From positions 1,346,349-1,410,348 of the forward strand of contig NC_049997.1 of NCBI RefSeq assembly GCF_000003815.2: DNA of 64,000 bases, written 5' to 3'. The translations under genes and the position numbers were made by a program. Source of the stretch: Branchiostoma floridae (taxonomy: Eukaryota; Chordata; Leptocardii; Amphioxiformes; Branchiostomatidae). Under the pieces are notes generated by a model, which saw only the letters and a program-made list of their open reading frames with translations, was not told the DNA's origin and searched no databases. Position 1 is the stretch's first letter. Each line of letters opens with the position of its first letter. This document shows positions 3,901-63,020 of this stretch, one piece after another.

Positions 3901-6494
3901 ACCAGACAGTGTAGGGTAAGTACTACAGTACATGACTTCCACCACCAGACAGTGTAGGGTAAGTACTACAGTACATGACTACCACCACCAGGCAGTGTAG
4001 GGTAAGTACTACAGTACATGACTACCACCACCAGGCAGTGTAGGGTAAGTACTACAGTACATGACTTCCACCACCAGACAGTGTAGGGTAAGTACTACAG
4101 TACATGACTACCACCACCAGGCAGTGTAGGGCAGTGTTTCCGCCAGACCTCAGCTGGGAGTCCGTCCACACTTGGGGCGCGAAAACCGCGAAAATTAAAT
4201 TTAATTAAAAAACCGCGAAAATTAATTTTAATTGTAAAACCGCGAAAATTCAATTCAATTGTAAAACTGCGAAAATTCAAGTTAACGGTTAACTGTCGCA
4301 AGAAAAAAAAAAAAACAACTAACGTCCGATAAAGTTCAGTGCCGTAACAACAAGGATGTTTTGATTTGTGCTGCGTACCGGTATGCCGCACCGAACAGGT
4401 ACTACTACTTTTAAAAAGTTCCAGAAACGGTTCTTGGACTTTCAAAAAAGAAATAACATTTGTATATATTGTATTTTATGTTGTGGTATACTTATAAATC
4501 ATCTAAAACCTTCCATAGATCGAGAAACTTGCGTTCAGAAATGACGAAAAACATCGTCTATCGGCGGCAATGTGCGTAATGGCTGCCAAAATCCCGCAAT
4601 CTCCCGTGGTGACTTCTCGCGAGATCTGGGAAAGCTAGCAACGTCATGGGAAACTAGCGCTGTGATTGGCCAGGATAAACAACAAGCTCTCGAGTGCCAT
4701 TTTAGAGCGTATTTATCCCGAAAATTTCTGCCGTTTTCGGAGATTTTGCGGGCTCAAAACTCATATCAAAAGGAACCAAAGTTGTACTTGATGTTTTTTA
4801 CGTCCAGCACCTCTCATGTGAACACTTTATTTTTCCGCTGTGTTGCCGATAACGAACTTGAACGAGGCCGGGGATTTCCCGTGCCGAGCACCCAGGCCGG
4901 TGGGCACATGTTTCTGATTGTGTTTTGTTTTGTTTACGATGATTGACGATGAAAACAGAGACTAAAGTTGTTAATCTAGACAAAGTTAGTGTGTTGTCTT
5001 ATTTCTCCCAATAACAAAGTACAGTTTGTAGTGTTATACTTATAGCGAGATCGACCTACCGCCAAGTTTTCGAAATGTGACAGGGCAAATTCGCGTAACT
5101 GAGACCTTGAAAAACGGGTTTTAATGAGATTATCTTATGCAAAAGGCCGTCGACACACATTGTCAACAACCATAACAATAGCAAAACAAACAGTGAGCGG
5201 CTTTCTGACTGTGGACGGCGTCCCCTAAGCCTCTAGCTTCAATACAAAACACAAAACTGCAGTTTACATTTATCGACTTTGTACAGATTTCTCGGCAAAA
5301 TGTGGGTCGCAATTTTTTTATGAGGACGGCCTCTGGTTGCGTTCAAGCCGTCCAAAACGAAATGAGACCGTCATTGGACGGGTGGACGCCCCTCTGGCGG
5401 AAACACTGCTGTACATCTAATGTCCAACACAAGAAATTGGACTTATCCAAATTTTCGACTGATCAACTCCAGTCTCAGGGATGGACAGTTCACTGCTTCT
5501 GTGATGTCACAGTCTATTCCTTGACAGAAAATGGAATCAATCAGTTGAAACTTGCGTAGGTCACATTTCTGGTGTTGGAAATAGCAGCATAAATTTTCAG
5601 GTTCAGAATGACTTCTACCAACGCAAATGAACTGTCAAGTCTTACATGACATCACTTTATTTACAGAGATACTATCACAGCTGCCCTCCTGTCTCGAAGA
5701 ACCCCGAGGACTGCCTCCACTGCAACAAGTTCCACACTCCACAGTACACAGAAGTACAGAGAGCTAACCCGGTCAGTGGCTGCTCTAGTGTTTGTCTTAG
5801 ATTTACAAAAAATGTCTTATTTGTTTGAAGCTTTTTTTTTTAGAAATTCAAATTTATTTTTTTATTTATGACTAAAAAATTGTCCTGCACTCCATGTCAT
5901 GAGGTGTCAGAAGAAAGACAACTTGTCTGATACAGATCATATCATTTAAAGTACCAATAAATACATGTACATTGTACATGTATATGCAAACAGTTGCCAT
6001 AATGCTAAATTATGAGTAAATAGCCCACTTTGTGATATTTGAATGATTTAGAGGTGATTTAGAGTAGTCTACATGCAAGTCTAGGACCAGTTTGCAACTT
6101 GATAAATTAAGAATGTAATTTGGCACAGGCAAACAGATAAGTACAATTTAGATAAAAATGTGATTTAGGTGTGCAGCCTAACAGGGGTTGACCCATTGGA
6201 CAGAGCCGCATGGAAGCGTGGTGTAAAGACTATCCGACTGCTGCCTACCCCTGGGTCAGGGATCCCAGCAGCAGTATAATTAAGCAATGGACAGTGAGTG
6301 AATGAGTGTATGGTTTGATTTTTGACACATTTTGTTTTACTTGTGTGCAGTTGAGCAGAGCAGAGGATGTCCATGTGGTGGTGGCGCCCGGTACGTACTC
6401 CGTGACGGCAGGTGAATGGGGAACACAGCGCCAGCAGACACACGTGGTACATGTAGATAAGGGACAGAGCGCTAACATCACCTTCACCATGTAG
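993..6494 (+). CDS. AKIP1: A-kinase-interacting protein 1 (AKIP1), 6 exons
   Basis: Exons 993-1007, 1080-1155, 1451-1542, 3190-3270, 5667-5771 and 6351-6494 join in phase to 513 nt (170 residues plus stop). The C-terminus contains VVVAPGTYSVTAG and THVVHVDKGQSANITF, the hallmark AKIP1 C-terminal segment. The middle contains the family's LNRALQRKIDW and FSSVLQYMTTTTRQC...RYYHSCP segments. In vertebrates AKIP1 binds the PKA catalytic subunit and affects its nuclear retention and NF-kB signalling, and it is also found at mitochondria. The acceptor of exon 3 (cgcacag at 1444-1450) was chosen because the better-looking acceptor at 1396 breaks the frame, so the 5' joins are less certain than the last three exons. 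Human AKIP1 is about 210 residues, so this is a slightly short orthologue. Intron 3 holds a LINE relic and intron 4 a 43-bp minisatellite copied from exon 4. Confidence 0.88.
1995..2925 (-). mobile_element. Non-LTR retrotransposon 3' end (ORF2 C-terminus)
   Basis: An open frame of 237 codons (2204-2917) ends with a Cys/His cluster, RICTLCNAKD then HFVLECELY, typical of the C-terminal zinc-knuckle region of LINE ORF2 proteins. Its 3' end runs into a (CATTGT)n tail near 1998-2032, the usual microsatellite tail of such elements. It is 5'-truncated and lies antisense in AKIP1 intron 3. Confidence 0.75.
3241..4130 (+). repeat. 43-bp minisatellite derived from AKIP1 exon 4 and its splice donor
   Basis: A 30-nt block starting TACATGACTACC and ending GTGTAGG occurs 21 times, separated by 20 linkers of 13 nt (gtaagtactacag). 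The total is 890 nt = 20 x 43 + 30, with no indel. The first block is the last 30 nt of AKIP1 exon 4 and the first linker begins with its 5' splice site. 19 of 20 linkers keep gtaagt; one (after copy 15) reads ggaagt. Copies differ at a few sites (ggcag/gacag, ctac/cttc, gact/gatt) in a partly periodic order. Confidence 0.95.
4132..5408. mobile_element. Non-autonomous DNA transposon with 16-bp terminal inverted repeats
   Basis: CAGTGTTTCCGCCAGA at 4132-4147 is matched by its exact inverse at 5393-5408. The CAGTG start resembles hAT-type ends. No transposase frame is visible inside. Near the left end are three copies of a short AAAACYGCGAAAATT-type motif. A clear 8-bp target duplication was not found. 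The element sits directly at the truncated end of the 43-bp array in AKIP1 intron 4. Confidence 0.6.
6175..6285. repeat. Interspersed repeat, copy 1 (about 100 bp)
   Basis: A block with TGGACAGAGC, then GACTATCCGACTGCTGCC and CCCAGCAGCAGTATAATT recurs at 10275-10370 with few changes. Neither copy is coding. The family was not recognised. Confidence 0.6.
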
Positions 6495-11703: not shown

Positions 11704-13525
11704 TCAGGCCTTGCCTTTGCTATCATTCGGAGGACCGGCCCTTTGTTTTGGTGGTGGAGGTTTTGGTATGTGCAGTGGTACAACCTCCGAACTGGGAACA
11801 GAGTCCTGTACCGCTGTTTGTGCTGGTACCATGGTCAGATCTGAAGTTCCCGTGCTACTAGGGGTTAGTTTAGTGCCTGTAAGAAAATTCCTTCTGGTCA
11901 GAATACAGATCACACTTAGTCTAGTGGTGAGTTCAACTTGAGGGGTAAGTATTCATGTAATTTTTCCAAACATTTTGTCATCTTTTACATGTCATATTTT
12001 TATTCATGCTAACAAAGTAACAGGCTCAAACTTTGTATTCAAATTTTGAAATAAACAGAAATTGAGATCATGGGAAGTGTAACATATTTTCACACATGCA
12101 TAAAAAATGTGCCATGGTGTGAGGCTTTGTATCCATGGCAACCCCAAATCAAACTCACCATATCATCACACAATATCAGTTATGTACTTGCAGATATTTG
12201 GATTGCCAACATGCATTATAGGCATTCTGTATAATGTTAACTACGTGCTAACTATTTCAGGCACTAGGTTCAGGCTGCAGCTGTAATGTAGAAACCCTGT
12301 TGTTACTGAAAATTAAGATTAAATCATATTTTCCATGCTGCTATTTCCTTTTAGCTGACCTAACATTATATATAGCAGCCATGAAAGGTAAGCCATGCAT
12401 ACTAAAGGTCAGCCATGCAAAGCCATGATTTCAAGTTCCATAGAACTAAGGCATGCCATATCTACGTACTAAATGGGGATGGCTACAACAGTATACTAAA
12501 TACATGTAGCCTACACTTGTGGGTGACGACTCCATAGGAGTTGTAGTTTGGTTTCCACCCCGCGAGCAGCCAGGACTGAGTCAGGGACAGCTCCTCTTTG
12601 TCCCATGACGAAGGTGGAGTATTATGGGATGGACCAGAAGTGATTTTTGCCTGTAGCCCACTATCGTCTCGAACCAAAATGGACTCTTCACTTTGCAGTT
12701 TGCTAGATTTTTCTGACATGTGCAGTTCTTGCAAACATGTCCCATGTTCTGTTTCTGTGGTTTCTGAAAAGTTTACAGTTTTTGCTTTGGAAGTGGTGGT
12801 CTGTTGTACCTCATGTGCTTTTGCCATTTGTGCACATTCAGATACGTGGCGGCGATCAATTCTTTGTTTGTTGGACTTTTCACTAATCTTGCAATTGCGA
12901 GTTGTTTTGCCAAAATCATTTTCAGAAACTACATGTGCAACTGCATCTATGCTGTTAGATTGACTTGCCACATGCAGACCTTGCATGCTATGGTTTCCCA
13001 AGTCTTGCGACTCAGACAGAAATTCTATATCTTTTCTCCTCAACATTTCTTTCACATGTACATCGCAAGCCATCCTGCCATAGTCTGTTTCCAACACATC
13101 TGACACACTCATGTCTTTACTTTTTGATTCGTTTTTACCCGCTATGACACTCTTTACTTCATTTCCAAATGAATTTCCAGAAACATGCAAAAGTTCGATA
13201 CTGTTGACACTCGAATTTTCCCTCTCCTTCAACAACCTGATATTTGTACCATTGGAGTTTTCAAAAGCTTCTAAAACACGTCTGGCCTTGCTCTTCGATC
13301 CCGCCCTACATTTTACTGACTGTTCAGATGTTGTTCGCAACAATTGCCTTTCATGTTCAGGACTGCCTTTGATTGTTGTGAACCTAACCCTTTTGTCCTG
13401 CGAGCTATCCACAACTGGCACTATCTGCATGTTATTTTGTTCCGTATCTTTGAAGGTTTCTATGGGAACAAGCTGCATGTCCAAAGAATCTGGTTCAACA
13501 TCCCTGGAAAGTGCAGAAGACTCAT
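11704..13525 (-). CDS. Low-complexity protein exons, possibly the 3' part of the C11orf16-like gene
   Basis: Exon 12515-13525 (336 codons) is bounded by a tgtag acceptor and a phase-1 donor (gtaggc). It joins exon 11704-11876, which ends in TGA. The product is Ser/Glu/Lys-rich with loosely repeated LHVS-type segments (ELLHVSGNS, GLHVASQSN, ELHMSEKSS). It then has an ordered stretch SWLLAGWKPNYNSYGV and a proline-rich tail (HIPKPPPPKQRAGPP). No 5' exon of its own was seen in 13526-14950. The first exon starts in phase 1. A phase-1 donor (CAAG|gttggc) exists just before the stop of the upstream C11orf16-like last exon, so the two may be one 1,159-residue protein. The donor is weak, so they are listed separately. 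Confidence 0.6.
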
Positions 13526-14955
13526 CTACAAAGGAAGATGGGGTGCAGGGAAGAAAAACAAGTCTTGTTAATGTGAGGTGAAACACACACAAGTAAGTAA
13601 GAAATGTAATTAAGGGTACATCTTGTGTTAAACCACTCTGAAAAGAAGAGTGCAGAAAGACTGAGTGACATGCAGATAGGGATTCTTCTAACATGGCCTA
13701 ATATTTTGAGATAATTAATGCAATCAAAATAAGATAGAAACTATTTTATGAATGTTGACGATTGTCAGCTTGATTCTCCTTAGAACGTGTCTCTCAGTGG
13801 GCCCTTATAGAAACGTTAATTTGCTGAATCCTGGCTCCCCTCTGACTTCTAACACAAGGATGGTGCTGGTCTTGAAGTTCAGTTCTGTCTGTCATTGCTT
13901 GGTCTTACGTAGAACATTTAATTACAACTGTATAGCTACCACACAAGAAATACATGCACTTAGGTGTGTCTAGTACTTCATTTATTCAAATATGTACATG
14001 ATGTACCACATCACAACACCAGTACACTTTGAAACACACAAAGCACAAGACATTTGGGGCTTAGCTACTTTCTAAAGGGAAGAATACAATGTCATGCCAC
14101 TTGTTCCAATTGAGCCAAATGTCTTAGGTATCAATTTCTCCTGAAAATATCACATTCTACCTGAAGCTACCATGCAGAAAACACCAACGAAATGAAGGAA
14201 AATCTCCTGATCATATTTACATGTACTTTGGATATAAGCAGAATTGATGGTAACTACACAAACTTATTCACTGATGCCAGTTCTGGCCACACCCATCTGG
14301 CTGTCACCTGGTGGGTTTAGTGATAACAATGCCATTTGGGTGTGGCAACCCGTGGCCATTGAAAGATGCACACATACTGGCAGCTACCATTCATGTCTTG
14401 AGCCACCCATTATGAATTCAATCTAGTGTGTTAGGAGTATGATTTTTCATCCACATTTCACTTGTCTGACCAGAAAAATTCTTGACATGTGTTGATCTTA
14501 ATTCTGAACTTACACACCAAGACATTTCTTGTGTGGTAGATTGACAGTCATGATCAGTACAATGTTCCATCAATAGAAAAAGACATGTTCACATGAATGA
14601 CACTATATACAGACATAACACACATGTTGGGACATCACATCACCTTCCAGAGTCCTGTTTTGGAGATATGTCAGAATGATTAAAGTAAACATGCATAGTT
14701 CACTGGAAATTTACAAATGAGCACGGAGTATTGCCAACTGTACAAGCTGTGACGTTTGCAAAGTTCGTGCAATGTAATAGCACGATTTGGAGCTGTATCC
14801 AATAAGAATATACCCACTTACAAACATGTAACAAAGAAGAATAGTCTGAATGTTACTGTTGCATCACTGCTGTAAGATAGCAAAAATAGTCAAAATGTTT
14901 GCCAAGATTATGTGGCACATTAATCTTGACAGCAGCCAATCAAACATTACAATTG
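13526..14955. other. Non-coding interval, intron or intergenic
   Basis: No supported exon or RNA gene. If the C11orf16-like transcript continues downstream this is an intron, otherwise it is the 3' flank of that gene. Confidence 0.4.
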
Positions 14956-17900
14956 TCATGAATATGATGATGTAGGCCAACCTTGTCTCTGTGCCAGGTA
15001 AGGAGAGGCCGGCGGAGGCTGGGGGTGCATCATGGCTTCCCTCATGTCGATGCTTCGTCTGAAGGTGTGGTCAACATTCTGGAAAGCAGAGCTCTTGTTT
15101 GGTGGTCCCTGTGGCGGCTGTGCTGGTGGTTGGGAGTGGTTGACCGTGTTGAAGACAGAATAGTCATAATCATTAGGCCCCGTGACAATGGTCGCTTTTC
15201 TCCCATTTCCCGGTGCGGTGTATGGTCTTGCAGGTGTTAGCTTCCGAGAATTTGTCTGTCCGTAACTTCCACGCGGGACAACATCGTGTTCAACAACTTG
15301 TTCATCATTGGGCCCACGAAGCAGTTCCATGGGAGTGTTGACTGTGGTGTCACGAAACGCAGGATACCTCTTCATTGGCTTTGACGTTGGGGGATGGGGT
15401 GCCTTTGATACAGGAGATCTCGGCGTTCTTGACCAGTATCTCCAAGGAGGACGCTCATCCTTCTGTGTCCCTTTGGTGTCCTTGTAAAGGCTCCAGTCAG
15501 TGTTTGTAGACTTGTCCCTGGGTGTGTAGTCCTCGTAGTCATACCAGTCCTCATAGTCACTTAGTGAACTCAGGCCACTATCAATAGACTTGGATTTCTT
15601 TAGAGACCTTCTCAGATCTTTCATCTCCTCCCGTGTGTCGTCCAGGAGGAGCTTGTTCTCCCGCAGCTGCTGTAACACTTTCCTGTTCAGCTGATCTTTC
15701 GTCACGTCCGCCCCAGGAATTTTCCCATCATCCTCTGTCTCCAGAGTGGATGGAACAGCTGGGTACCAATACCTGCAAAACCCAAACAAACACTGCCTTG
15801 AGTTATGTCTTCAGGCTCATGTGTTCTAATCTTAGATCTAGTATGGTCACAGACAGACTAAGCTGTGAAAAGATTTTACCCATAAGTAGATTGCTTTTAA
15901 AATGTACAATGTATTACAATACGACAACAGCTTACTCACCAGGGGTATGGGTAGGTTGGGTAGTGTGTTGGTACGTAGACGTGCCTGGTACTGCTGACTA
16001 GATGGGGAGACCTGATTCGTGCAGGTTTGGGCGGAGTGAACTCGGCAGGGTCGCCCACGATGTACGTGGATGGATACCCGGGCGGAGACTCGTACGGCCA
16101 GCCTGGATTCGCTTCCAGAAACTTCTCTCGAGCCGCCACCGGCATCTGCAGCTCAAAGATGACTCTCTCATACAGCATGAGGGGGATCCAGATGGCCTTG
16201 TGTCGGGGGACAGACTCCGTTTTACCATTCCAGAAAGTCACCACCAGATCTTCATCATCATCAATACCTGCAAAAGGGAAAGAAAAAGAATTGAGACTTT
16301 GAGAGATAGTTTTAAAGCTGTTACTGGGGGTAATATTGATATATATATATATTCATGCATCCTGAAATCACCACCAAAGACTATATACAGTAAAAAAAAT
16401 GAAACTTACTGTCTTCAAATCTTCTCTCCACCCCTTCCAGCACTGTGCCAGGCCCAAATCTCTGCCCTGTTACCTCCCATGGTGCCAGCACCTTGTCACC
16501 AGGAACAATTTTGTGTCGGAAGGCATCCACATGGGCGATCATGTCATAGATGCCTGTCTCCTGCATACGACTCTTCAATGTTGGCACCTTGTCAAACTCG
16601 ATCATGAAACGGCCCTTTGCATCCTAAACATAGAAGGAATGAAAAGTGTTGACCTTACATCAATGATGATTTTCATTGCAATGATATTGCCTTCAATCAA
16701 ACCAAAAAAGAGATATTGAATAAATGAATAAATGACTAAATAGCAAATCATCCGACTTACGGGAAGTTGATTTGCCACAGTGCCCATGTAGTAGTAACCA
16801 TCCTCATCTCGTCTGGCCAACACTCTTGTCCCGCGCATGATGAGACTTGCGGATGGAGAGAACTCCAGACTTGTCGTGTCCACGATCTTCCCCGTTATGG
16901 TGTTCCTGAGTTTCAGGGGGCGAGTGTATGTCCCTGTTGCCACACTCGGTACTGTTACCACTCTGTCTAGTGGTGTGTACGAGACGGTTGGCTCCCACGG
17001 TGTGTATGTGACGATCGGCGTGGGGTCCGTCCCTTCCAGGAAGGGGTTATGGTCCAGTCTCGTCATCACACTGGACGACTTTAGTGGTGGGTACAGAGGA
17101 CCGCCTAGTGGGCGCTTCCCCGAATGGTCGGCGCGATAGACCGGCGTGACCCTGTGAACGTTTCCCTCCACAGTAAGGGTGATGATGTGGAAGGAACCAC
17201 GGGTCTGCACGGCAAGGTCCTGTAGGAAGTCGTGCGCGGCTGCATCAGCGAAGGTGTGTGTCAGGAAGATGCAGTGAATGGGGCGACCGCGGGAGGAGTA
17301 GGCCACGTGTTGGAGGATGTCGTGGGGAGCCTGGTCGGGCAGGCCGTCCGTCACTAAGTACACCGCCGTGCACCCTGGGTCACCCAGAGCAGTCAGTAAG
17401 GCATCTAAGGTGTTTGTTCCTGTCTTTGGGGTCAGGGCGCGAATCCAGCCCGCAGCTCTGGTGACTGTGTGTGGCGTACATTTCACCATACGGTCAGCCC
17501 ACTGGTCAACCTGATGAACAAACAAACACCATTATAAGGACCGTATGGCATACAATGTGCAAATTTCGAAACATCTTCTCTTTCTGCACATTTGTTACAC
17601 GTGTATAACATTAAACTGGCATTATGTCATAACTGAGCTGGGAGAATGTTCCAGCCCAGTTGATAACTTGGTTTTCATAATTGTGTTAAACTATTATCAC
17701 ACTGAATAAAGTCATGTTCATCCATGCAACCAGCACAACAGCAATGAATTCCAAATATTGTAACAAAAAATATTTTGAATGTCTTACTCCTCTGAATTAC
17801 TGCCTTCCATGCATCATTACTGGCTTGTTTTGTACTACACTTTGCAATATTCATAACTTTATCTGAATACCAATTGTGTTTAGGGTGATTGTGTCCAAAC

Positions 17901-25310: not shown

Positions 25311-28300
25311 TTATCTGCCCAAGAACAAGGCGAGTGGGATGGTGACGCCCACACATATGAAGTAGAGAATGACACACAGCCTGTCCAGAACCCTGCCCAG
25401 CTTGTGGTAGTCTCCCTCCTCCTCGTCGCTGTCAGCCTCCACCAGTTTGTTGAGAACAGTTTGGAGCATGTGTGTCTCCGCCTGCACACTCCGGCTCAGA
25501 TTCTCCAGGGTGGTCTGCAGTACCAGCTGAGCGCCAGGTGGCGCCGATGCAGACTTGACGCGCACAGACTGGGCCTGTCTGACCGGAGGCACTGTGTTTG
25601 TGTGGGTTTCTTGTTCCACAGCGAGGCTGCCATTGAGGTAGGTCAAGTTGGCATTTCCACCGCTTTCCTTGTGTTCAGGAGTCGGGTTTTTGGCACTCAG
25701 GTCCCCAAACAGTAGGAAGGTGGCCAAGTATCGCAGGAAGACACTGGAATGGGGTCAGATATTATCAGTTGAAGTTTTCAGTTCAAAAGAGCACACAAAC
25801 GTGACATGTCATTGCAGGGAATGAAACTCAATACAAAAATATAATGTGTGGTACATACAGTCAAACCTGTACTACTACTAGTGACCAATTTTGCATATGA
25901 TCAACAACTTGAACAAGTGATTGTGGCCTACATGTAAGAAGAGAAATGTTGTGCTTTTGGTTGCAACCCAAGCAAAATCCCGCCGAACCAATCTTTATTG
26001 TGGGTTGACTGCTAGCAAGAAAATTTTTGGATCTGGCATCTGAGTGATGAGAATTGAAAACAGAATTCCATGTAGTCGTACAAATCTTTTTTGATAGATG
26101 TCCTGCATTTCACACTGTTAACTGATTAAGGCTTTGAGTAGCTGTTGTAGGATGTATTAAGCATTGTACTTCTCTGTTCAGTTCATTGTACAAGCACAAG
26201 TACATATTATAGATATCATGTTGAAAACACCAGATGCCTCCTGCTGAAAAACAACACAATCCCTACCTGCAGATCCTTATTTTGTTCAGGACCTGAAACA
26301 CAAGATATTTTTTCCAAGGCTGTACTGTAGTTGTGTGATTTGCTTGATTTCTCTTTCCAACATAACAAATTACAACTTTTTTTCATTTTTTTATCTGACC
26401 TTTGTCAACATTTGGCTTGAAATAACCAATGGCTAGTAGGCTAGTTGACATGAGATCGAGAGGATTTGATTCCTTGCTGGACTTTGTGTCCTGAGAAGGC
26501 ACTTCATCCGGTTTTCCTCACTCCACCCACATGTTTGCATGGGTACCTGACTTAGGACAAGTTAGGTTGGGGAGGTAAACGCCCAAGTCTTTTTTATACA
26601 GTAAGTTCCTCAGTATGTGCCAAGAAACTAAAGGCAAGGCCACCCTTGATATTCCAGTGCATTTAACTTTTTACACGTTACCATATACATCCCTTTTATC
26701 TTCTACCAAACCAATAGTAAGTTGTAGTTGAATGGAGGTTTTAGTACAATTTTTGTGTAACTGAACATTAACATCGCATTTTTCTACTACATGTATCAGG
26801 GCTCAAAATAGTGGGTGCATGTGCACCCAGGTGCACCCAAAATTGGACCTGTCCACCCAATTATTTTCTGTGGGTGCACAAGGTGCACCCAAATATTTTC
26901 TTGGGTTTATGTATGTAACGATATAAAAGTAATATACTAGTATACATCATATTCTTGACATCTCAGTGTTAGAAAGATAATAAAAATGTCTTTCATGGTA
27001 CTTGTTTAAGAATTTGATAGCAACTAAGTTTTGAAATTAGGTTTTTCTGACATTCTACTTAAATTTTTTGTGGCACCCAATTTTTTAAGCTGGGTGCAGC
27101 AGTGCACCTAATCCCAAAAATGAATTTGGAGCCCTGTGTATATTACAATAGACCCACCTCCGTGCCCAGGGAGGCAGGTCTCCTGTCCTGCTGCTCAGGT
27201 TGATGATGACACAGGTGAACAGCATGAAGAGACCAATCAGCCCCATGCACACGATGATCACCACAGCTGCACAACAAAACAACAAGTGGTTCCCAAAATA
27301 GTTTCATCAGGTTGGTAGAATATAGGAGAATGCTTTTTACACAACCAGCAGGTACTTACATTGCTTACGTTTCAATGTCTCTCAGATTCCAGAACTCCAG
27401 TTAGAAGCTCTGAGGAAGGTGTCTGAGAGACATCGAAACGTAAGCAATGTAAGTACCTGCTGGTTGTATGAAAAGAATTCTCCTATATCCTCAAAACAAG
27501 TGGTTTTAACACCCAAGCGTGGGGACTGAACTAACATCTTTAAGTCCCAAACTTTGCTTCGTCTTATTACACCAGAGTGGAGGGTATTCTCTGACAAAGT
27601 ATTGTACGACATTGTGTAGTTGGATGATGTGATGCCTGTTCACAGCTGTATGATCTCTATATTCACTCTGCTGTATTCGTATGTAGTTTGGCATATTGTC
27701 TGCTCGTAGTTGCAAGATGATGCACAAAAATTGTTTTCAGGGTAACTTTTTGTATCACAGCCCAAATTGAAGGTAGAAAATATAAATACGTCATGGAGTA
27801 TGTAACCTACAGCTTCTTGTTTTGTATTTTGTTGTCTGGAATGTATTTGCCCTGCCAGGCATCATCTAGATATCTCGGTCATGCTGCACAGGGAAAGTTA
27901 TTTACTTTTCTCAAGGTCACAACACTGGGTCTAGATTCCAAGCCCAACACACTACCAGTTATGCCACACACGACACCACATTGTGGGGTAATGACAGAAG
28001 GGAGTGAGTTTTATCATACCAATAAATGGCATCTTGTCCTTGACAGGAAGGAAGTCTGTGATGACCACTAAGGACACCACCATGGCTAGTAGGATGGTTA
28101 TGCCAAAGCCGATCCGATCGCTCTTTTCGATGGGGGTGGCAAAGGTGATGACCATCAACACTGCCAGTATGATGCAGGGTGAGATGGTGGTGGCGATGTG
28201 GTAGATAGGGTCTCTGGTGAAGTCCAGCATCATGCAGCCTTTTCCAGCTTCCACTTGGAGATATGCAACGACTGTCCACTGGCCAGCTGTGATCTTAGTT

Positions 28301-31300
28301 TGTGTCTTACAGCCATTATAACCTGGCCTTTCAGCACTGGGACACTGGAGCTGCTCCCCTGCAGAAATACTGGATTCAAAACAGATGGGACACTTCATGG
28401 TGTCCACAGGGAAGAGGTAGGGATCCAGGGTACAGGTTGTCGTGGTCAGAGCCTCCACGGTCCAGTTGACATGGCCCTCACTGGTCACAAGCACTTTTGA
28501 TGCTGGAAGACTTTTATAGTTAGTGTCCGCACTGGAAAAGTGTCAAATGACAGGGATTAAGATTTTGTTTTCCAGCAGTAAGGGGCGGTATAACCCCGTC
28601 GTGTGTAAGCACGTTGATCAAAGATGATGGTGATTATTTCCAGCAGAATGCAGATGACAGTGCTATTAAAGATATAAAGATATACTATCCACTCACTTTT
28701 TCCTGAGTAGAAGAGTTGGTTTCCAGATCCTTGTGACTGGCAGGAACAGACTCTTGATGTCATTATACTCCTGTTCTATCCAAGCCAGTCGGGGATCCTC
28801 CCAGTCCTGTTGGGAACAGATATGATTGATATGTAAGCAGCTGTCTGCTTAGTTCATACTGATATTAATGTCATACCTTGGCAAGAATATTGGTCCATAC
28901 TGGTGTCCATATTTTGCAGTATTGCACAGGCTTCTCAGAGTCCTCCCCAGAGGATGGAATAATGGAGGCCCTCCACTATACTCCTAGCCCAGCTCCAATA
29001 TACTCCTTTTGAAATTTAGTGTTTTTTACCTATTTTCTTGGTTAGTTTTGCTAAAATTAATGAAAATTCACAGATTTTTATGCCAAGTGGCATCACTTTT
29101 CCAGTCGGCATTGTCTGCAAAAACTTGTGAATGGGCGATGATGAAAACAATTGTCGTTTTGCCACTTCAAAACAAAGGAATCACTGAAATATATTTTACT
29201 TGTAGTTTTTGACACCCTCTGTCATTGCAAAATGAACTCATTTTCATGAAAGCGCAGCGCGTTGGTTCAGGTTATTTTTGCCAGCCCCTCCACTATACTA
29301 AAAAATTCTGGGGAGAACCCTGCTTCCATTGAGTGACACAAATGCACTGTTCCCGTGCACCGGTATCAAACATTGGAATACCAGATTCTGACGTTGTATT
29401 CTATACGTACAGTGCATTTGCATACCATTGCATTCAGAAATATGATCTTAAAATGAATACCACCAGCCACCAACACCTGCCTACCAAACTTGAGAAATAA
29501 CTTACCACATTTAGAGAAATGTCCACCATGACTCTCTCATCTTTCTCATTCTATGAAGAAATAAACGTCAGACGTAGTTAAGGCAGCTGGAGTTTGTTTG
29601 TGGTAATGCAATATATTATGAGTTTAGGACAGTAAACATTGCTGCATATAATCAGCTTTCTTTCATTGTCTAAACTGGTTTGTTAATGAAATCTGTTATC
29701 AGATATTACTCAAAATCATTCTGTCTAATTTACTTTGAATTAGAACTTTCTGTTGACAAATCAGTTGTGTTCAGTGCAATGTTCGTGTAACAGTAAGATG
29801 GCTTTATGGCAGATATCTGTGGCACCTGCTAAGTGCACAGGTGGCTGTAGTGTTTAATATATAGTCTCCCAATGCATTGTATTGTATTGTATTGTATGGG
29901 CCGACTACTCACTCTCGCAGCCAGGGGCTGAAATGTGAGGAGCTTACAATAGACAGGCTAAGCCGCAAGGGTCTGAAATGGCAGCCTGTATATAGCGTCA
30001 AATGACCTCAATACAACATTAATTGCCCCAGGTGTGGCCAGGGATTGTAGGTTTTGAACCACTCACACCGCACCATCGCACATGTGGTGGGTTCTTTAAT
30101 GTGCGTAGGGTGTGGCTGTCCCCAAACACGGGACCTCCATTGAAGGTCCTATCTGAGGGACGGCCCTAGACGAAGCTAGGTACTCATTTTCACCTGAGTA
30201 AAGTGAGGAAAGTCGTGTGGCACAAGATCGGCGACACGCAGCTGGATTCGACCTCAAGACCTCTCGGTCCCGAGCCAAACACACTGCCGCTGCGCTACGC
30301 GATCTGCATTTGCCTATTACAGAGTTGAATTACTAACTATATTGTGACATCAGTAATTTGCACCTTTTGGGACTTTTCAACACTTGTCGTTTATACAGTA
30401 CAAGTTACTGGACTTACTGTGTCAACGATGTTGTTGATGCGTGCTTGGAATGATGAGATGGTGATGTCCAGGTGTGGCTTGGTCTCCACTTTGTACTGGT
30501 TACGCTCAAACAAGTCAGTCAGCAGGTTACTCTCATGGTCCACTAGCATGAAGAAACACATCCCTTAGTACTGGGTGGTTCTGGTACTGTATTATCAGAT
30601 CTTTTTGGTCGCGTACATTGCAGAAGTTTGACTTTTGCAAACACTTTAACTAGAGACTCTGGTATTGACTTTTAGAAACACTTAAACTAGAGACTCTGGT
30701 ATTGATTTTGAGAACTTAGAACAAGCTATGTTACTTAGATAGGGCTCTATGAAGTGAAATGTGTACTAGCCTGGTCCCGACTTCCGGTCTTTGATGTATG
30801 TATGTTAATGGGTACTACTACAGAACTGTAACAGTAACTATACTAACGCTACTTGATGAATGGCACTTTGCTATTTTATTCTCCAGCCAGTGCAAAAACA
30901 ACAGTAATGGAGTGGAAAATCTGGAATCCATCAGGATTTTCTTATAACTTTCCCCATAAGATTATTTTTCTAACCCCACAGGACCAACATAATTACCATC
31001 ACAGGTGGGCGGCTCGTTGGACCAGGTTCCATCACCTTGACAGGTGGACCTGAGAGAGCCATCCACGGGGATGTAGCCAGCTGAGCAGCTGAAGGTCAGC
31101 TTGTCACCACTCAGGTAATTAGCCTTCTTTGGACTCCTGGTGCCATACCGTGGTGGACCAGGGTCGGGGCATGTTTTTTCTGGGATATGGGAAAGATATA
31201 AAACAAGGTCAGTCCACACAGGGACTGCACTGCTTCTCTGGCTGAGCATACAGAAAGTGCAGTTCAAAAAATGTAAACACAAGCCAAAAACAATTATTCT

Positions 31301-34300
31301 TTTTCTTGCTGGCCGGGGCGGCTTCTTGCCGTCCCTACCTTTCAAACCATCTTAACTGTGTGCCTGGGCGATAACATCTCACCACCACTCCCTGCACCTG
31401 CCGTAACATCACTGTTTGAGATCTATTCGCATGTTTTGTTTGTCTTTGTGAACCGCGCTCCATTTTGTGGCTCTCCTCCCAGCATTGTAAGGATTCCTTT
31501 TATTCACTAATAGTTGTCAATACCCTGAGAACGAGACCTATAACCCGGATGCGGGTCGTATATGGGATATTAATGACCTAGCTTATGGAGAAAATGCAGC
31601 CTTCTGATTGATCGACAATTGTCTGACTAATAGTATATGATAAAATAACCAATGATATCAAATTATCAAACAAATGGCTTTAAAAAAGACCTAGAGACTT
31701 CTCTCATCCTTCCCCCTGAACCCAAACTTTCTCTCACCTCCACATCTGGGCAGTTCACAGGATACCTGAACCCCAGCTGTGGACAGACACCATGGTCTGT
31801 TGTCACCATCAGGGTTCCTACAGTAGTTCTCCTGCAGGTTAGCCCAGGGAAACCGGGACGTGTAGAAATCACCATCATCAGACCACTTCGCACAGACTTG
31901 TCCATCATTTGTCTTGGCCACACGTCCCCGGTAGTTGGTACCGTCTCCATAGTAACAATCTGTGGGTGGAATGTTTAAGACTTGTCAGGTCTTTCATCAT
32001 TGACTCATAGAGTAAAAGTAGGTGGAAAGGAGTAAACCTGTTGTACTACCATCTGCACTACTATCTGCCTAAAAGATCAGTCAGTGTCATACTCTCTTTT
32101 TGATCATTCATCAATGTGAAAAGTAGTACATATACTACCAAATGTTTCATCTATAGACAGCTGTATACCAAGTTTGTCCATAGATTTGCGATACAATGTA
32201 AATGATTGCAAAATGTCATGTGTTGGTTCATTTCGCAGCATAGTGAATCCTTTAGTTACAATCTAAATATGTTGAAGATCGGATACTCACTACCATTCCC
32301 AGGCATTGGAGCGTTCAAACAAGACACGTTAGCACTTGGGTAGGGGAAGCGTGAGCAGTCTGGGAAGGGCCAGGACCCGTTGGTGTGTGAGACAGCCTGC
32401 GGCCGACAGGAGGCTGTCACCTCCTCACACAGGGTACGGCAGGGCAGCAGCTGCCGGGGGCTGGGGGACAAATAGTCAAATCAAGTTTATCATACAACGA
32501 TTGTATCAGGTCTGGTACAATGTATGGCAAATAACGGATTGTTAAACAATCTATACTTGGTGAGTGTACTAATCCAGAATAATTACTCGTATATATGCGT
32601 ATATGTGCATGATTGTTTGTTTAACACAAAATGTGTCATTTTGAAATACATGTAGGAGGAAGACCGGTATAACATGAAACAAAAATAGCTGACCAGGCAA
32701 TGTAGAAAAAAGATAATAGTGTGATAAACAAAGGAGAGAGTCTTTTATACAATCATGGCACAGTACAGGAACGTGTTCTCTTGTTAATAGCTTACCCTTT
32801 TAAATCACATTTTGGCAAGATCATGGCACAAGCGAAAAGGTTGAAGTCCGGATGGCAGACAGGGTCGGTAGCAGACTCGAGTCGCTGCATGGTTCTGGCC
32901 TGGCTGGAGGCTGTGGCTTGACTTGTGTTCTGATGCATGTATGGGTTGGGTAAAGTCGTCTTGCTATATCCCAGTCCCTTACAGAAGAGGAACTCTGAAG
33001 GGAGGTTCTGACATTCTAGAAAAGCAAGGACCGTAAATTTTGTCATTACATGCCAGTATGCTATAACATGGTCTAGGTCAATTTGTGTCTTTACACATTA
33101 TCACAGTGACTGTAACGTTAAGAGAAGATTTGGAAGTACATTTGTGTGATGAGACATTATGAAAACAGTTGGTGTCTTGCTACATGATGTGTGTCATAAG
33201 GTAGGATATCACTGTTATTCCATATCTCCTTCTTTCTAAGACTCACCACATCCAGTTTCATCGCTGTTGTCGAAGCAGTCTTTCCTGCCGTCACAGCGTC
33301 TCCAGGAATCCACGCACGTCACATCGTCATCACAGCGGAAGTACCCGGGGCTGCAGTTACTTTTCTCTGAGAACAGAGAAAATACAGAGCTTACAACAAC
33401 TATTATTGAAGTAGCAATCTATTTATTTATAATAAGTACCGATATAATGAAAAAGGAAGAATGTGTACACATTTTTATTGATCAGCAATATCTGATAAAA
33501 GCTCCTTGTCAGCTACACCAAAGGCACTGTGTACATGTCTGCTGACATTTTTCTAGTATTTCAGTTAAATTGCTGAATACCACACAATCCTTTGGGCACC
33601 TTCAAAAGCTTATACCTCTTACACCTCACTGACATATATTTAAGTGTATTGTATTGTATTGTATTGTTTTAGGTAAAGTTTGCCGAGAAGGGTTTTTTTT
33701 TTCTTATTTATTTTATTTTGCCCCACCGATGTACAGCCTAATTCTCTATATGAGAATACTACTTCATCAGCCTCAAAGTTTACCTGAGCTAAAACAATAC
33801 AGACTTGAGGGTGACTGACAACTCATTCTTTTGGGACCATCAGCATTCACTGGATACTCTTATTCCAATGATATGGGTCGGTATATATCGATTTAAGAAA
33901 TGATTTATGATAACAATTGGAGTTGGCATGGTCAATGTTTCCTTACTTTTCTCCTTTGCAACAAAGGTAGCCCGGAATCCAGGCTCTGTTTGGAAGCCGT
34001 CAGACTTGAATATGACTGTCATGACGTTTGTGGTAGTAGTCAATGGTGGAGGGGCTGCAGTGCCACAGTACTTTCCTGGAGAGACAATAAGAATGAGGGT
34101 TAGGTTTAGCCGTAGTAGATCGTCGTAGATCGCTGCTCGATAAAGTTGTAGAAATTCTAAGCAGGGTCCAATCAAACAACCCGATAACAAGAATCTGAGG
34201 CAGCTTCATACAGAAAAAGACAGCTGGAATTTGCAGGACAGTGTAAAGCTATTCTAACAAGCGTTCGGGGACCTCATACCTCCATGAAATATTCTGATTA

Positions 34301-35465
34301 TGCAAATGACTGTCACATCTGCATGATTTATGCTTGCTTATGTACACCTTTCACTAACTTACACAGGTCACAATGTTGACAGCCGAATCATTTACAACAT
34401 GTACTAAGAAGAATTTGGACACTCGCTCATTATTTATGCAAATTGGGGACTAATTTGCATAAATAGAATCTGCTTATCTTCCACCTGTCACAAACTACAT
34501 AGATTACATGTATTTGAGTCTCATATTGGAAACACTGTAAATATACATTCTCTTCATTAAGTATGCTAATTAAATCCAAATCTGAATAATTTGCACTTCA
34601 CTATGTCTAGTGAGATACCAACTTCAGTTTGTATCGTGTCATCAGCAGATCAGACGTGAAACTTACCGATAAGGTAGCCCAGTGTCGGCGTGCCCCCATA
34701 CACCTCCACACTGTCCCAACACGTGCCCTTGCCGCCCTCCACATTGAAAGCCGCGGAAAAGCTCAGCTGCACTATCTTGCCGGGGTCCACAGTTATTTCC
34801 CATCGACAGACGTGATTGAGCGGGTACGGCGATGGGTGCATGGGACTGGTGAAGGTTCCATTAGATCCGGTCAGGTTAAAGGTGGAGGGACAGTAGTTAG
34901 TTACTGCACTGGTCTTGACCTGAGAACCTGTTGTGTTCCCTGCCAGGGAGGCACCGGCCGTGGTGTTTGTGGCGGGAGCGGCCGTGGTGTTAGACGCGGC
35001 TGAAAAAGACGCAGACACGTAAAAGTTAATCCATATGTAATTACGTTTGTCTCAAGTGCAAAATTCTGTTATGTCCCAGTTATCATAACAGAATACGCTT
35101 AAATCTGTCAGATGTCACAGGACAATTGTGCCGAACAAGTTGAACAAAGTTTACATTTCACTTCGTACACGTGAATTTCAGACATGTATATGTACTCGTA
35201 GTTTTCTAAGACTGATAGGATTATGAAACAATAGGCAATGGCTGTCATGTTATGTACAAGACCGAAGCTCGACACTGAAAATGGACCTCACATCGCTTCC
35301 GACGGTCTACTGCCGTTCTCCAGTACTAGTAAACTCGAACAGGTAGTTCGCGTAAGAAATGGGCGGTTTGATTTGGTACCGCTAACGCTAACCCATACCT
35401 GGTGTCTGTTTCAGTTGGAAACAGCAGAAGACGAAGATAACCAGTAAACTGTGTGTCCACATCAT
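25311..35465 (-). CDS. CUB-LDLa-Frizzled-kringle-Sushi ectodomain fused to a Cys-loop ion channel subunit
   Basis: Fourteen exons join in phase to 2,778 nt (925 residues plus stop): 35399-35465, 34667-34999, 33947-34075, 33247-33366, 32796-33015, 32291-32460, 31738-31959, 30997-31179, 30418-30542, 29506-29550, 28697-28806, 28020-28531, 27158-27266, 25311-25743. Order: signal peptide (MMWTHSLLVIFVFCCFQL); Thr/Asn-rich linker; CUB about 58-172; LDLa about 180-216 (six Cys, CFDNSDE); Frizzled CRD about 217-342 (ten Cys); kringle about 348-420 (YCRNPDGDNRPWC); CCP about 422-481; then the pentameric channel. The channel has loop A WKPTLLL, a Cys loop of 13 residues (608-622), TM1 about 687-706, TM2 about 715-735, TM3 about 746-769, and TM4 near the end (LDRLCVILYFICVGV). 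TM2 has 9' Leu and Asp at -1' and 20', which predicts a cation pore. There is no vicinal Cys pair in loop C. The ligand is unknown. Confidence 0.9.
26797..27136. mobile_element. hAT-like MITE, CAGGGCTCAAAAT ends
   Basis: CAGGGCTCAAAAT at 26797 is matched by an inverse ending GAGCCCTG at 27136. The interior is rich in GGTGCACCCA motifs. It lies within an intron of the channel gene; its right end is about 20 bp from the donor of exon 27158-27266. Confidence 0.55.
27321..27487. mobile_element. Fold-back element with hammerhead-like core, Penelope-type
   Basis: Arms of 66 nt (27321-27386 and 27422-27487) are inverse copies at over 90% identity. The plus strand 27407-27445 reads GCT-CTGAGGA-stem II-GAAAC-GTA-AGC. 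Stem II is GGTGTCT paired with AGACATC over a GAG loop. It lies in an intron of the channel gene. Confidence 0.6.
28927..29322. mobile_element. hAT-like MITE, CAGGNTTCTC...CCCAGA ends
   Basis: CAGGCTTCTCAGAGTCCTCC at the left corresponds to the inverse of ATTCTGGGGAGAACCCTG at the right, and both ends carry CCCTCCACTATACT. The target duplication is not clear. Located in an intron of the channel gene. Confidence 0.5.
29874..30306 (-). mobile_element. tRNA-derived SINE
   Basis: On the minus strand the head carries an A box TAGCGCAGCGGCAG and a B box GGTCGAATCC at tRNA spacing. A body of about 350 bp follows, ending in (ATACA)n at 29875-29897. A related body fragment is at 36235-36365. Confidence 0.75.
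30997..34999 (-). other. Modular ectodomain exons of the channel gene, bounded by phase-1 introns
   Basis: CUB spans two exons (34667-34999, 33947-34075). LDLa is 33247-33366, Frizzled CRD is 32796-33015 plus 32291-32460, kringle is 31738-31959, and CCP is 30997-31179. Every boundary between modules, and the last one into the channel, is phase 1. Only the intron inside the Frizzled domain is phase 2. Symmetric 1-1 exons are the classic signature of exon shuffling. Confidence 0.85.
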
Positions 35466-61440: not shown

Positions 61441-63020
61441 CACACTTCATAGACTATGAGAAGGCCTTTGACAGCATAGACAAAGTCACCTTGTGGAAGA
61501 TGCTAAGACACTACGGGATACCACAGAAGTTCATATCTCTATCCAGAGCACATGTTCATATCTCTATCCAGAGCACATGTTCATATCTCTATCCAGAGCA
61601 CATGTTCATATCTCTATCCAGAGCACATGTTCATATCTCTATCCAGAGCACATGTTCATATCTCTATCCAGAGCACATGTTCATATCTCTATCCAGAGCA
61701 CATGTTCATATCTCTATCCAGAGCACATGTTCATATCTCTATCCAGAGCACATGTTCATATCTCTATCCAGAGCACATGTTCATATCTCTATCCAGAGCA
61801 CATGTTCATATCTCTATCCAGAGCACATGTTCATATCTCTATCCAGAGCACATGTTCATATCTCTATCCAGAGCACATGTTCATATCTCTATCCAGAGCA
61901 CATGTTCATATCTCTATCCAGAGCACATGTTCATATCTCTATCCAGAGCACATGTTCATATCTCTATCCAGAGCACATGTTCATATCTCTATCCAGAGCA
62001 CATGTTCATATCTCTATCCAGAGCACATGCAAGTACATGAAATGCAGGGTGGCACATGCAGTCTAGGACAGCTGACAAAAAGCTTTGATGTGAAGACAGA
62101 CGTACGACAGAGTCGCTTAGTGTCACCGTTTCTTTTCCTACTGGTTAACGACTGGATCAGGCAGACAACTGCGAAAGGGAAGAATGGTGGGATCCAGTGG
62201 ACACTCTGAACACAGCTAGAGGACCTAGACTTTGCCGACGACCTGGCACTCCTCTCACACAACCACAAACTGTCAAACAGATGCAGAATAAAACAGCTCA
62301 TCTCGACACAACATCAACCAGTACATGATTCAAGATCAGTACTAGAAAGAAGACTGAACTCATTAAAATCAACACTAGAAACAGTACACCTATCACAGTC
62401 GGAGGGGAGGAAATGAAGGTGACGGGAAAATGAAGGAGAGTCATTGGTGTACCTGAGAAGTGTGGTAGACCGTCAAGGGGGCACAGAAGAGGATTTTACA
62501 GCCAAGATAGGGAATGCAAAGGCAGCTTTCATCATGCTGAGGAATGTCTGGGCCTTCAGGGTAATGCGCACAACTACCAAACTTCGCATCTTCAACTCTT
62601 ATATCAAATCAGTACGGTTCCGAGACTTGGACAACAACAAAGGCAACACAGCACAGGGCACAAACCTTCATCAACACCTGTCTGAGGAGGATCTTTAAGA
62701 TCAAGTGGTCATACAAGATCAGCAACCTGGAGCTGTGGGACAGAGCAGGACAAATACCAGTGGAAAGTCAGACCCTCAGAAGGAAATGGTCCAGGATAGG
62801 ACACACACTCAGAAAGTCACCAACGAGCATCACACAGCAGGCCCCAACCAGGAACCCACAGGGCAAACGAAAGCGGGGAGGGCAGCTAGAGAACAGCTAG
62901 AGAAGGGACGCAGAGGGAGATATGAGGAGCATCAGTAACAGCTGGCACGACCTGAGAAGGAAGGCCGAGAGACATGTGCAGTGGAGGACGATCATCGGTG
63001 GCCTATGCTCCAACCGGGGC
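61441..63020 (+). mobile_element. LINE reverse transcriptase relic interrupted by a tandem array
   Basis: The start KAFDSIDKVTLWKMLRHYGI matches reverse transcriptase motif A. After the array come GQLTKSFDVKTDVRQ, SPFLFLLVNDWI, FADDLALLSH (the catalytic motif, in another frame), GSVVDRQGGTEED-like and TTKLRIFNSYIKS, ending near CSNRGKG. Several frameshifts and stops make it non-functional. Confidence 0.85.
61530..62029 (+). repeat. 20 perfect copies of a 25-bp unit inside the RT relic
   Basis: The unit begins TTCATATCTCTATCCAGAGC and ends ACATG. 500 nt = 20 x 25 with no visible variant. Because 25 is not a multiple of 3, each frame cycles through a 25-residue super-repeat, and all three plus-strand frames stay open across it. 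Confidence 0.97.

What the first reader, a model, noticed from the sequence alone, without database searches (positions are those of the whole stretch)
25311..35465. A ligand-gated ion channel subunit carrying a CUB-LDLa-Frizzled-kringle-Sushi ectodomain
Seen: 14 exons with matching phases give one uninterrupted frame (2,778 nt) from a signal peptide through five extracellular modules into a complete Cys-loop subunit with four membrane segments. Known: nicotinic-type subunits normally start directly with their ligand-binding domain. CUB-LDLa-Frizzled is the layout of MFRP, and Frizzled plus kringle is that of ROR and some MuSK receptors. Inference: this could be a channel that senses Wnt-like, matrix or protease-type ligands, or that clusters through its ectodomain. 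A pentamer would display five copies of the five-module stalk. I know of no described receptor with this architecture.
Basis: partly seen in the sequence, partly recalled or inferred. Interest (0 to 1): 0.95.

Follow-up and report, generated by a model that had tools for sequence, protein, structure and literature searches.

The report
Ion-channel family with protein-binding stalks
This lancelet-type genome carries a large family of nerve-receptor-like ion channel subunits that seem to have lost the usual acetylcholine pocket and gained a long outer stalk of protein-binding modules, an arrangement we found described for no animal channel of this kind.

Summary
On the minus strand, 14 GT-AG exons (35465-25311) give one 925-aa frame. 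Pfam finds, all above cut-off, CUB, LDLa, Fz, Kringle, Sushi, Neur_chan_LBD and Neur_chan_memb in that order.

It is not a one-off. The window's genome holds 63 further loci of the same channel clade; 57 of 63 have a kringle upstream on the same strand within 12 kb (58 of 64 with one locus added because of its kringle), against 0 of 60 other channel loci. In 14 paralogs modelled, a Sushi exon and a channel exon join across a short intron. Ectodomain and channel distances co-vary (Mantel r 0.93); both halves show purifying selection.

The channel half is nicotinic/5-HT3-like (Cys-loop, acidic -1', Leu 9'); loop A, C and D acetylcholine-site residues are gone in 15 of 15 members.

Best reading, partly inferred: cation-type subunits whose stalk binds a macromolecule that anchors and/or gates the channel, as LEV-9, LEV-10 or Neto do in trans. 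Ligand and expression untested. Eight paper searches found no description; a 2016 paper names one unspecified lancelet Neur_chan_memb architecture.

The parts
35399..35465 (-). Exon 1: start codon and signal-peptide-like stretch; ends in phase 1 with a weak donor (gtatgg)
34667..34999 (-). Exon 2: Thr/Asn-rich linker and first part of CUB (phase 1-1)
33947..34075 (-). Exon 3: second part of CUB (phase 1-1)
33247..33366 (-). Exon 4: LDLa (phase 1-1), 6 Cys
32796..33015 (-). Exon 5: first part of Frizzled domain (phase 1-2)
32291..32460 (-). Exon 6: second part of Frizzled domain (phase 2-1); 10 Cys over exons 5 and 6
31738..31959 (-). Exon 7: kringle (phase 1-1), 6 Cys
30997..31179 (-). Exon 8: Sushi/CCP (phase 1-1), 4 Cys
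30543..30996 (-). Intron between Sushi and channel exons: the critical junction; no signal-peptide-like first exon found in it
   Evidence: a matching junction found in 14 of 14 paralogs modelled with the window gene's phases imposed
30418..30542 (-). Exon 9: start of the ligand-binding domain (phase 1-0)
29506..29550 (-). Exon 10: 45-nt LBD exon (phase 0-0); a matching 45-nt exon was found in 14 of 14 paralogs (length imposed in the search)
28697..28806 (-). Exon 11: 110-nt LBD exon (phase 0-2); 110 nt in 14 of 14 paralogs (phases imposed, length free within 0.7-1.35 times)
28020..28531 (-). Exon 12: Cys-loop, shortened loop C, M1, M2; one exon here, two (182 and 330-342 nt, boundary phases imposed) in the paralog models
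27158..27266 (-). Exon 13: M3 and start of the intracellular loop
25311..25743 (-). Exon 14: intracellular loop, M4, stop codon

Best explanation
One gene for a cation-type pentameric ligand-gated channel subunit, belonging to a clade of about 64 loci in this genome. Shown by sequence: a nicotinic/5-HT3-like channel half (Cys-loop, M1-M4, acid at -1', Leu 9') behind an ectodomain of phase-1-bounded modules (CUB, LDLa, Fz, kringle, Sushi) that has been duplicated together with the channel and kept under purifying selection in paralogs; most of the acetylcholine site is lost in 15 of 15 members examined. Inferred: modules were added by exon shuffling ahead of the LBD exons. The modules form a stalk that binds a secreted, matrix or neighbouring-cell macromolecule. 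Binding holds the channel at a contact site and, transmitted through the LBD and Cys-loop, biases or drives opening of a cation pore; this does in cis what LEV-10/LEV-9 or Neto-type partners do in trans. Positioning is judged more likely than direct gating.
For: Open 14-exon frame and all seven Pfam domains. Colinear modules in fetched paralogs; Pfam on 4 of the 14 paralog models finds all seven domains above cut-off in A and E, six in F, five in N. Kringle upstream in 57 of 63 clade loci (58 of 64) against 0 of 60 other channel loci; none downstream within 12 kb. Junction found in 14 of 14 models. Mantel r 0.928 with 0 of 2000 permutations reaching it; dN/dS 0.27-0.55 (ectodomain) and 0.12-0.48 (channel) in nine paralog pairs. 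Loss of loop A, C, D residues; Cys-loop, -1' acid and 9' Leu kept. Clade split from six other channels with support 1.00. Best solved relatives are nicotinic alpha-7 and other AChR subunits. Module precedents: LEV-10 (CUB, LDLa) and LEV-9 (CCP) cluster acetylcholine receptors, Neto (CUB, LDLa) glutamate receptors (PMC9083331, passages); Neto2 is among the CUB matches.
Against: No transcript, protein or current has been seen. 6 of the clade loci show no kringle within 15 kb (two have one at about 25 kb). The full module set is not universal: no CUB match in paralogs C, N and O (2.2-4.7 kb held upstream of LDLa) nor in L050 and L051, and Fz cysteines are lost in one subgroup. A tryptophan lies three residues before the aligned loop B position in 12 of 15 members, so loop B loss depends on gap placement. 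In LEV-10 the LDLa is dispensable for clustering. Expansion in number fits a sensory family as well. The window gene's own selection could not be measured. Nothing here shows which module binds what.
Confidence: 0.55

Rival explanations
1. Lineage-specific sensory receptors: nicotinic-derived subunits that detect environmental chemicals or surface molecules, like octopus chemotactile receptors; the stalk captures or filters stimuli.
For: About 64 loci, several in runs on C2, C11, C16, C230; loss of most of the acetylcholine site; octopus receptors diverged from nicotinic receptors and expanded (PMC11526382, passages). In three of four C230 pairs the ectodomain evolves faster (dN/dS 0.31-0.52) than the channel (0.12-0.21).
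Against: The fourth C230 pair (I and G) shows the reverse (0.33 against 0.48), and in the C2 cluster the two halves do not differ (0.33-0.55 against 0.41-0.47). No expression data. Loop C is shortened by 10-11 residues in all 15 rather than diversified in length.
Confidence: 0.25
2. Non-gating structural subunits: they join ordinary nicotinic subunits, which bind acetylcholine, and only add an extracellular anchor.
For: None of the 15 members examined has loop C cysteines, while subunits with YECC exist in the genome (L001, L002). M2 remains cation-type.
Against: The clade forms its own tree group (support 1.00); subunit interfaces were not tested.
Confidence: 0.15
3. Two neighbouring genes (a secreted modular protein and a channel) wrongly joined, or an assembly join.
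For: Chimeric gene predictions are a documented problem in lancelets (PMC4967905, section 12 read). The window's exon 1 donor is weak, and the Sushi-exon donors of paralogs F, H and N are weak (gtcatc, gtcatc, gtggtt).
Against: Same join at many loci on many contigs; intron as short as 227 nt in one paralog; no excess of signal-peptide-like first exons in the junction introns; ectodomain and channel co-vary.
Confidence: 0.03

Closest known systems
Nicotinic acetylcholine receptor / 5-HT3 subunits (Cys-loop pLGIC)
   Same: LBD and TM Pfam domains, Cys-loop of 13 residues between cysteines, cation-type M2; best PDB matches alpha-7 and other AChR subunits
   Different: Five modules ahead of the LBD; loop A, C and D residues and vicinal cysteines lost, loop B aligned to a gap or Ser
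DeCLIC and other prokaryotic pLGICs with an N-terminal domain
   Same: pLGIC with an extra N-terminal extracellular domain; DeCLIC is calcium-sensitive
   Different: The 2022 DeCLIC paper says such domains are not observed in any eukaryotic homologue (PMC9897478, abstract and start of introduction). No comparison of its NTD with these modules was made
LEV-10, LEV-9, Neto, SOL-2 (receptor-clustering or auxiliary proteins)
   Same: CUB and LDLa (LEV-10, Neto, SOL-2) and CCP (LEV-9) modules acting on ionotropic receptors (PMC9083331, passages)
   Different: Separate proteins acting in trans; none carries a channel
MFRP and ROR/MuSK (layouts recalled)
   Same: CUB-LDLa-Fz order (MFRP) and Fz-kringle order (ROR, some MuSK)
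   Different: No kinase or immunoglobulin domain among the Pfam matches; a four-helix channel instead
Octopus chemotactile receptors
   Same: Nicotinic-derived, do not bind acetylcholine, lineage expansion (PMC11526382, passages)
   Different: No modular ectodomain mentioned in the passages read
Molluscan nAChRs with extra domains
   Different: Different domains named; its Table 1 of domain combinations was not read

Membership tests
Cys-loop pLGIC | Ligand-binding domain family (PF02931) | tested here: met
   108.7 bits, cut-off 26
Cys-loop pLGIC | Transmembrane region family (PF02932) | tested here: met
   73.2 bits, cut-off 28.1, residues 690-914
Cys-loop pLGIC | Cys-loop: two cysteines 13 residues apart with FPxD | tested here: met
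   CTLDPYLFPVDTMKC in the window protein; aligned cysteines in 15 of 15 members
Cys-loop pLGIC | Pentameric channel activity | not testable with these tools
   needs expression and recording
Cation-selective branch | Acidic residue at M2 -1' and Leu at 9' (positions recalled) | tested here: met
   alignment to alpha-7
Acetylcholine-binding alpha subunit | Aromatic residues of loops A-D and vicinal cysteines in loop C (recalled) | tested here: not met
   loops A, C, D residues absent in 15 of 15; loop B absent as aligned, uncertain in 12; vicinal cysteines present in L001 and L002
MFRP | CUB, LDLa and Fz in a single-pass membrane protein (recalled) | tested here: not met
   order met, but a channel region follows
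ROR/MuSK | Fz, kringle, transmembrane helix, tyrosine kinase (recalled) | tested here: not met
   Fz and kringle present; no kinase match
Neto/LEV-10 | CUB and LDLa on a single-pass auxiliary protein | tested here: not met
   modules present, but on a channel subunit
DeCLIC-type NTD channels | Extra N-terminal domain on a pLGIC | tested here: met
   five modules before the LBD
DeCLIC-type NTD channels | NTD homologous to that of DeCLIC | not tested
   no comparison made
Octopus chemotactile receptors | Nicotinic-derived receptor activated by environmental molecules | not testable with these tools
   acetylcholine site largely lost; activation unknown

The most novel reading that the evidence does not exclude
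A eukaryotic pLGIC family gated, not merely anchored, through an N-terminal multi-module ectodomain: dozens of fast cation channels, each reading a protein, lipoprotein or matrix ligand (a contact, tissue or microbe label) through its own CUB-LDLa-Fz-kringle-CCP-type stalk, with the old transmitter pocket discarded.
Probability: 0.27. Interest if true: 0.95.

Novelty: new variant of a known kind. Interest (0 to 1): 0.86.

Why it matters
Extra N-terminal domains on pLGICs were stated in 2022 to be unobserved in eukaryotes (PMC9897478). Here a clade of about 64 loci in an animal genome mostly carries one, made of the kinds of module that cluster receptors from outside in worms, flies and mammals. 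That makes two questions testable: can a Cys-loop channel be driven by a macromolecule bound far above the transmitter site, and can trans-acting synaptic organisers be built into the receptor chain? It also supplies paralog evidence for a lancelet architecture of the sort that had been suspected of being a prediction error.

Tried and rejected
Rejected: two genes or an assembly join. Unlikely: a pseudogene; the frame is open over 925 codons, though the window gene has no close paralog (39-46% identity to the other 14), so its own dN/dS is poorly measurable: against A the ectodomain dS is saturated.

Plasminogen-like lysine binding as the family role: weakly considered. The window kringle has an NPDGDNRPWC stretch like plasminogen's (alignment), but paralogs vary there; that this stretch holds lysine-binding residues is recalled.

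Led nowhere: Rfam and tRNA searches of the window gave nothing; NCBIfam gave only sub-cut-off channel models. The strict-donor scan for signal-peptide exons found 0 of 15 but also missed the window's own exon 1, so it was repeated with any GT. Supplementary tables of PMC4967905 could not be read (no look-ups allowed). Structure prediction was not used: its rule accepts proteins that the DNA gives letter for letter, and this protein is spliced.

Limits of the counts. Paralog exon models were searched with the window gene's intron phases imposed, and with 45 nt imposed for exon 10; with the exit phase left free the 182-nt form of exon 12a was the best hit in 2 of 14 and among the best two in 13 of 14. 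Paralog N's exon 9 model scores poorly with a weak donor. The 63 clade loci are my choice from 97 matches; the same 63 score 67 bits or more and the next locus 61, a modest gap. C2:9613008 (58.4 bits) was added because a kringle and a Fz lie upstream, hence 57 of 63 without it. Of the other 71 matches (135 less the window and the 63), that locus was moved to the clade and 10 were dropped as second exons of loci already counted, leaving 60 controls; one of these, C16:1676351, is a 35-residue piece 74% identical to the query and may be a clade fragment. Kringles were sought with family kringles and one search scored 150 of 388 candidates, so unlike kringles near control loci could be missed; the chance figure of 0.12 assumes even spacing over the genome. 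Clade loci may include uncollapsed haplotypes (C256:10740 and C8:17304914 have equal scores, as do C16:2406593 and C16:6834764). Paralog B, with a frame-shift-like Fz exon, is in the Mantel test; the nine dN/dS pairs share genes.

Partial models: B, C, N, O start at LDLa and J at the second CUB exon; H ends before exon 13 and I before exon 14. Part's output (G and H) was cut; one search printed their main values. First exons are credible only for the window, F and I. In one search L004 was translated in a wrong frame and is ignored, and my printed residue numbers were one off, so motifs were read from the alignment itself. In one search L026 was mis-framed (it holds a stop) and branch supports were shifted by rerooting; one search recomputed the split with and without L026 (1.00 both times).

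Full report
OBSERVATION. Reading 36500-25000 on the minus strand and splicing at the stated positions gives 14 exons, 2,778 nt, 925 aa and a stop, with GT-AG at all 13 introns and phases that fit. Pfam puts CUB, LDLa, Fz, Kringle, Sushi, Neur_chan_LBD and Neur_chan_memb in that order, each above its curated cut-off. The module exons are bounded by phase-1 introns (CUB 1-1 twice, LDLa 1-1, Fz 1-2-1, kringle 1-1, Sushi 1-1), the pattern expected of shuffled exons (general knowledge). The first LBD exon enters in phase 1; the next two are 45 and 110 nt.

IS IT ONE GENE? The window's genome is held as G000 (513,431,437 bases, 431 contigs; window = C19:1346349-1410348). A search with the channel half gave 97 matches; besides the window gene I took 63 loci on 19 contigs as one clade. 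A second search with a paralog's M1-M2 exon gave the same 63 at 67 bits or more, the next at 61; C2:9613008 (58.4 bits) was added because of its upstream kringle and Fz. Fourteen paralogs were fetched in part or whole. With tblastn, LDLa, kringle, Sushi, LBD and channel matches are colinear in 14 of 14; Fz in 13 (not N); CUB in 11 (not C, N, O). Exon models with the window gene's phases imposed give a 110-nt exon 11 in 14 of 14, a 45-nt exon 10 in 14 of 14 (length imposed), and a Sushi-to-LBD junction in 14 of 14, with weak Sushi donors in F, H and N and a poor exon 9 in N. The models split the window's exon 12 into 182 nt and 330-342 nt.

GENOME-WIDE TEST. Kringle sites (163 after merging) were compared with channel loci. 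Within 12 kb upstream on the same strand: 58 of 64 clade loci (57 of 63 without C2:9613008), 0 of 60 other channel loci; expectation under even spacing 0.12; none of the 64 has a same-strand kringle downstream within 12 kb. The six without are C3:9265568 and C11:103934 (a kringle at about 25 kb), C19:8582865, C16:2345468, C16:6834794 and C4:18898467 (a Fz match lies upstream). An earlier version alone gave 46 of 63 against 0 of 20. Kringles unlike the family's may be missed, and copy counts may include uncollapsed haplotypes.

ONE UNIT IN EVOLUTION. For 15 genes, ectodomain (LDLa to Sushi) and channel (LBD to M2) distances correlate (Mantel r 0.928; 0 of 2000 permutations). In nine paralog pairs, which share genes, dN/dS was 0.27-0.55 in the ectodomain and 0.12-0.48 in the channel; the tenth pair (window and A) is saturated in the ectodomain and 0.31 in the channel. 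So both halves are kept as protein in the paralogs. A tree of a roughly 100-residue region splits 21 clade members from six other channels with support 1.00 (correcting).

ALTERNATIVE START. If the channel were a separate gene, its signal-peptide exon might lie in the junction intron. In the window's 454-nt intron none was found; over 15 introns (227-854 nt) 4 hold a candidate against a shuffled mean of 3.38. The same scan recovers exon 1 of the window gene and the first exons of paralogs F and I.

CHANNEL HALF. Closest solved structures are alpha-7 and other AChR subunits, with 5-HT3A among the best 60. In an alignment with alpha-7, 15 of 15 members keep the Cys-loop, the acid at -1' (GDR, GDK or SDR in place of GEK) and Leu 9'. 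All 15 lack the loop A tyrosine, the loop D tryptophan, and the loop C tyrosines and vicinal cysteines; loop C is 10-11 residues shorter. The loop B tryptophan aligns to a gap or Ser, but 12 of 15 have a tryptophan three residues earlier, so that loss depends on gap placement. Two other subunits of the genome keep YECC (L001, L002); two (L006, L007) lack the vicinal cysteines. Residue roles are recalled. The protein should not bind acetylcholine in the usual way.

STALK. LDLa carries a calcium-type acidic motif in 14 of 14 paralogs by a pattern that allows D/N at two places; paralog C's LDLa has 4 cysteines. Fz has 10 cysteines in the window gene and in 12 of 14 paralogs; N has 7, and B, whose Fz exon looks frame-shifted, has 7. 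Loci on C10, C12 and C16 also have Fz with cysteines lost; no CUB was found in L050 and L051, while L049 does not reach beyond Fz. Pfam on 4 of 14 paralogs: A and E have all seven domains; F lacks Sushi at E 0.01; N has Fz below cut-off (22 of 32.1 bits) and no CUB in its model. Nearest solved relatives: Fz to Sizzled and Frizzled-8, kringle to plasminogen and HGF, CUB to cubilin, neuropilin, MASP and Neto2, CUB-LDLa to enteropeptidase.

MECHANISM. CUB/LDLa and CCP proteins cluster or modulate ionotropic receptors from outside: LEV-10 (LDLa plus five CUB; its LDLa is dispensable for clustering), LEV-9 (eight CCP), Neto (two CUB plus LDLa) (PMC9083331, passages read). C. elegans L-AChRs interact with an extracellular complex that includes LEV-9 and the LEV-10 ectodomain (PMC12881522, passages). 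The simplest reading is that this family built such partners into the chain. Positioning by a bound macromolecule is the more likely half, direct gating the bolder half; both are inference. Octopus chemotactile receptors show that nicotinic-derived families can lose acetylcholine binding and expand for sensing (PMC11526382, passages), the main rival.

WHAT IS IN PRINT. Of ten paper searches, eight bore on this question and two on precedents; listings were capped (20 of 287, 20 of 498, 10 of 23). None showed a description of the architecture; most subscription papers and all bioRxiv preprints are not held. PMC4967905 (section 12 read) names B. belcheri protein 269420_PRF0 among novel Branchiostoma-only architectures, with Neur_chan_memb, in ortholog pairs shared with B. 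floridae, and warns that such cases may be prediction errors; its table was not readable, so whether it is this family is unknown. PMC2246102 (passages) reports kringle, CUB and LDLa on amphioxus adhesion GPCRs. PMC9897478 (abstract and start of introduction) says N-terminal domains are not observed in eukaryotic pLGICs. PMC4284660 and PMC6071037 had no hit for the terms sought; PMC12373286 had none for channel terms and one CUB passage on other proteins; PMC6354393 and PMC4795631 were read in passages.

VERDICT. The architecture is real (about 0.97). It is a new variant of the Cys-loop channels, in a large family with a degenerate acetylcholine site. Function is unproven.

Noticed in passing
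window 16605-17531 (-): Open frame with a marginal von Willebrand A match (VWA_3, 27.9 bits, cut-off 27) and a sub-cut-off DUF4537 match; long open frames at 14959-15810 and 12486-13697 on the same strand have no Pfam match.
   Followed up: partly
window 61529-62029: Twenty perfect copies of a 25-nt unit, with three overlapping plus-strand frames of 177-245 aa; Pfam matches of the longest frame look like repeat noise.
   Followed up: no
window 3235-4131: About 21 copies of a 43-nt unit, 96% matching.
   Followed up: no
window 27317-27491: Self-complementary stretch (about 83% identity, inverted) inside the intron between exons 12 and 13.
   Followed up: no
G000:C230:310028-310224 (L031): First Fz exon of paralog B matches in two pieces that overlap in the query, as after a small indel; B may be decaying.
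   Followed up: partly
L047, L049, L050, L051 (C17, C10, C12, C16): A subgroup of the family has a Frizzled domain that has lost several cysteines while keeping LDLa (seen in three of four stretches; L049 starts too late), kringle, Sushi and channel.
   Followed up: partly
L045 (C2:27905000-27914999): Two CUB copies in tandem ahead of one LDLa: module number may vary within the family.
   Followed up: no
G000:C8:9518649-9519575: Kringle and Sushi matches of the family kind without an adjacent channel match; the next channel locus, C8:9531270, has its own kringle at 9525602.
   Followed up: no
G000:C6:15.63-15.71 Mb, C18:15.52 Mb, C8:5.54 Mb, C259: Channel loci whose M1-M2 region matches in two pieces, 39-58% identity to the query, with no kringle site upstream: possible sister group without the stalk.
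   Followed up: no
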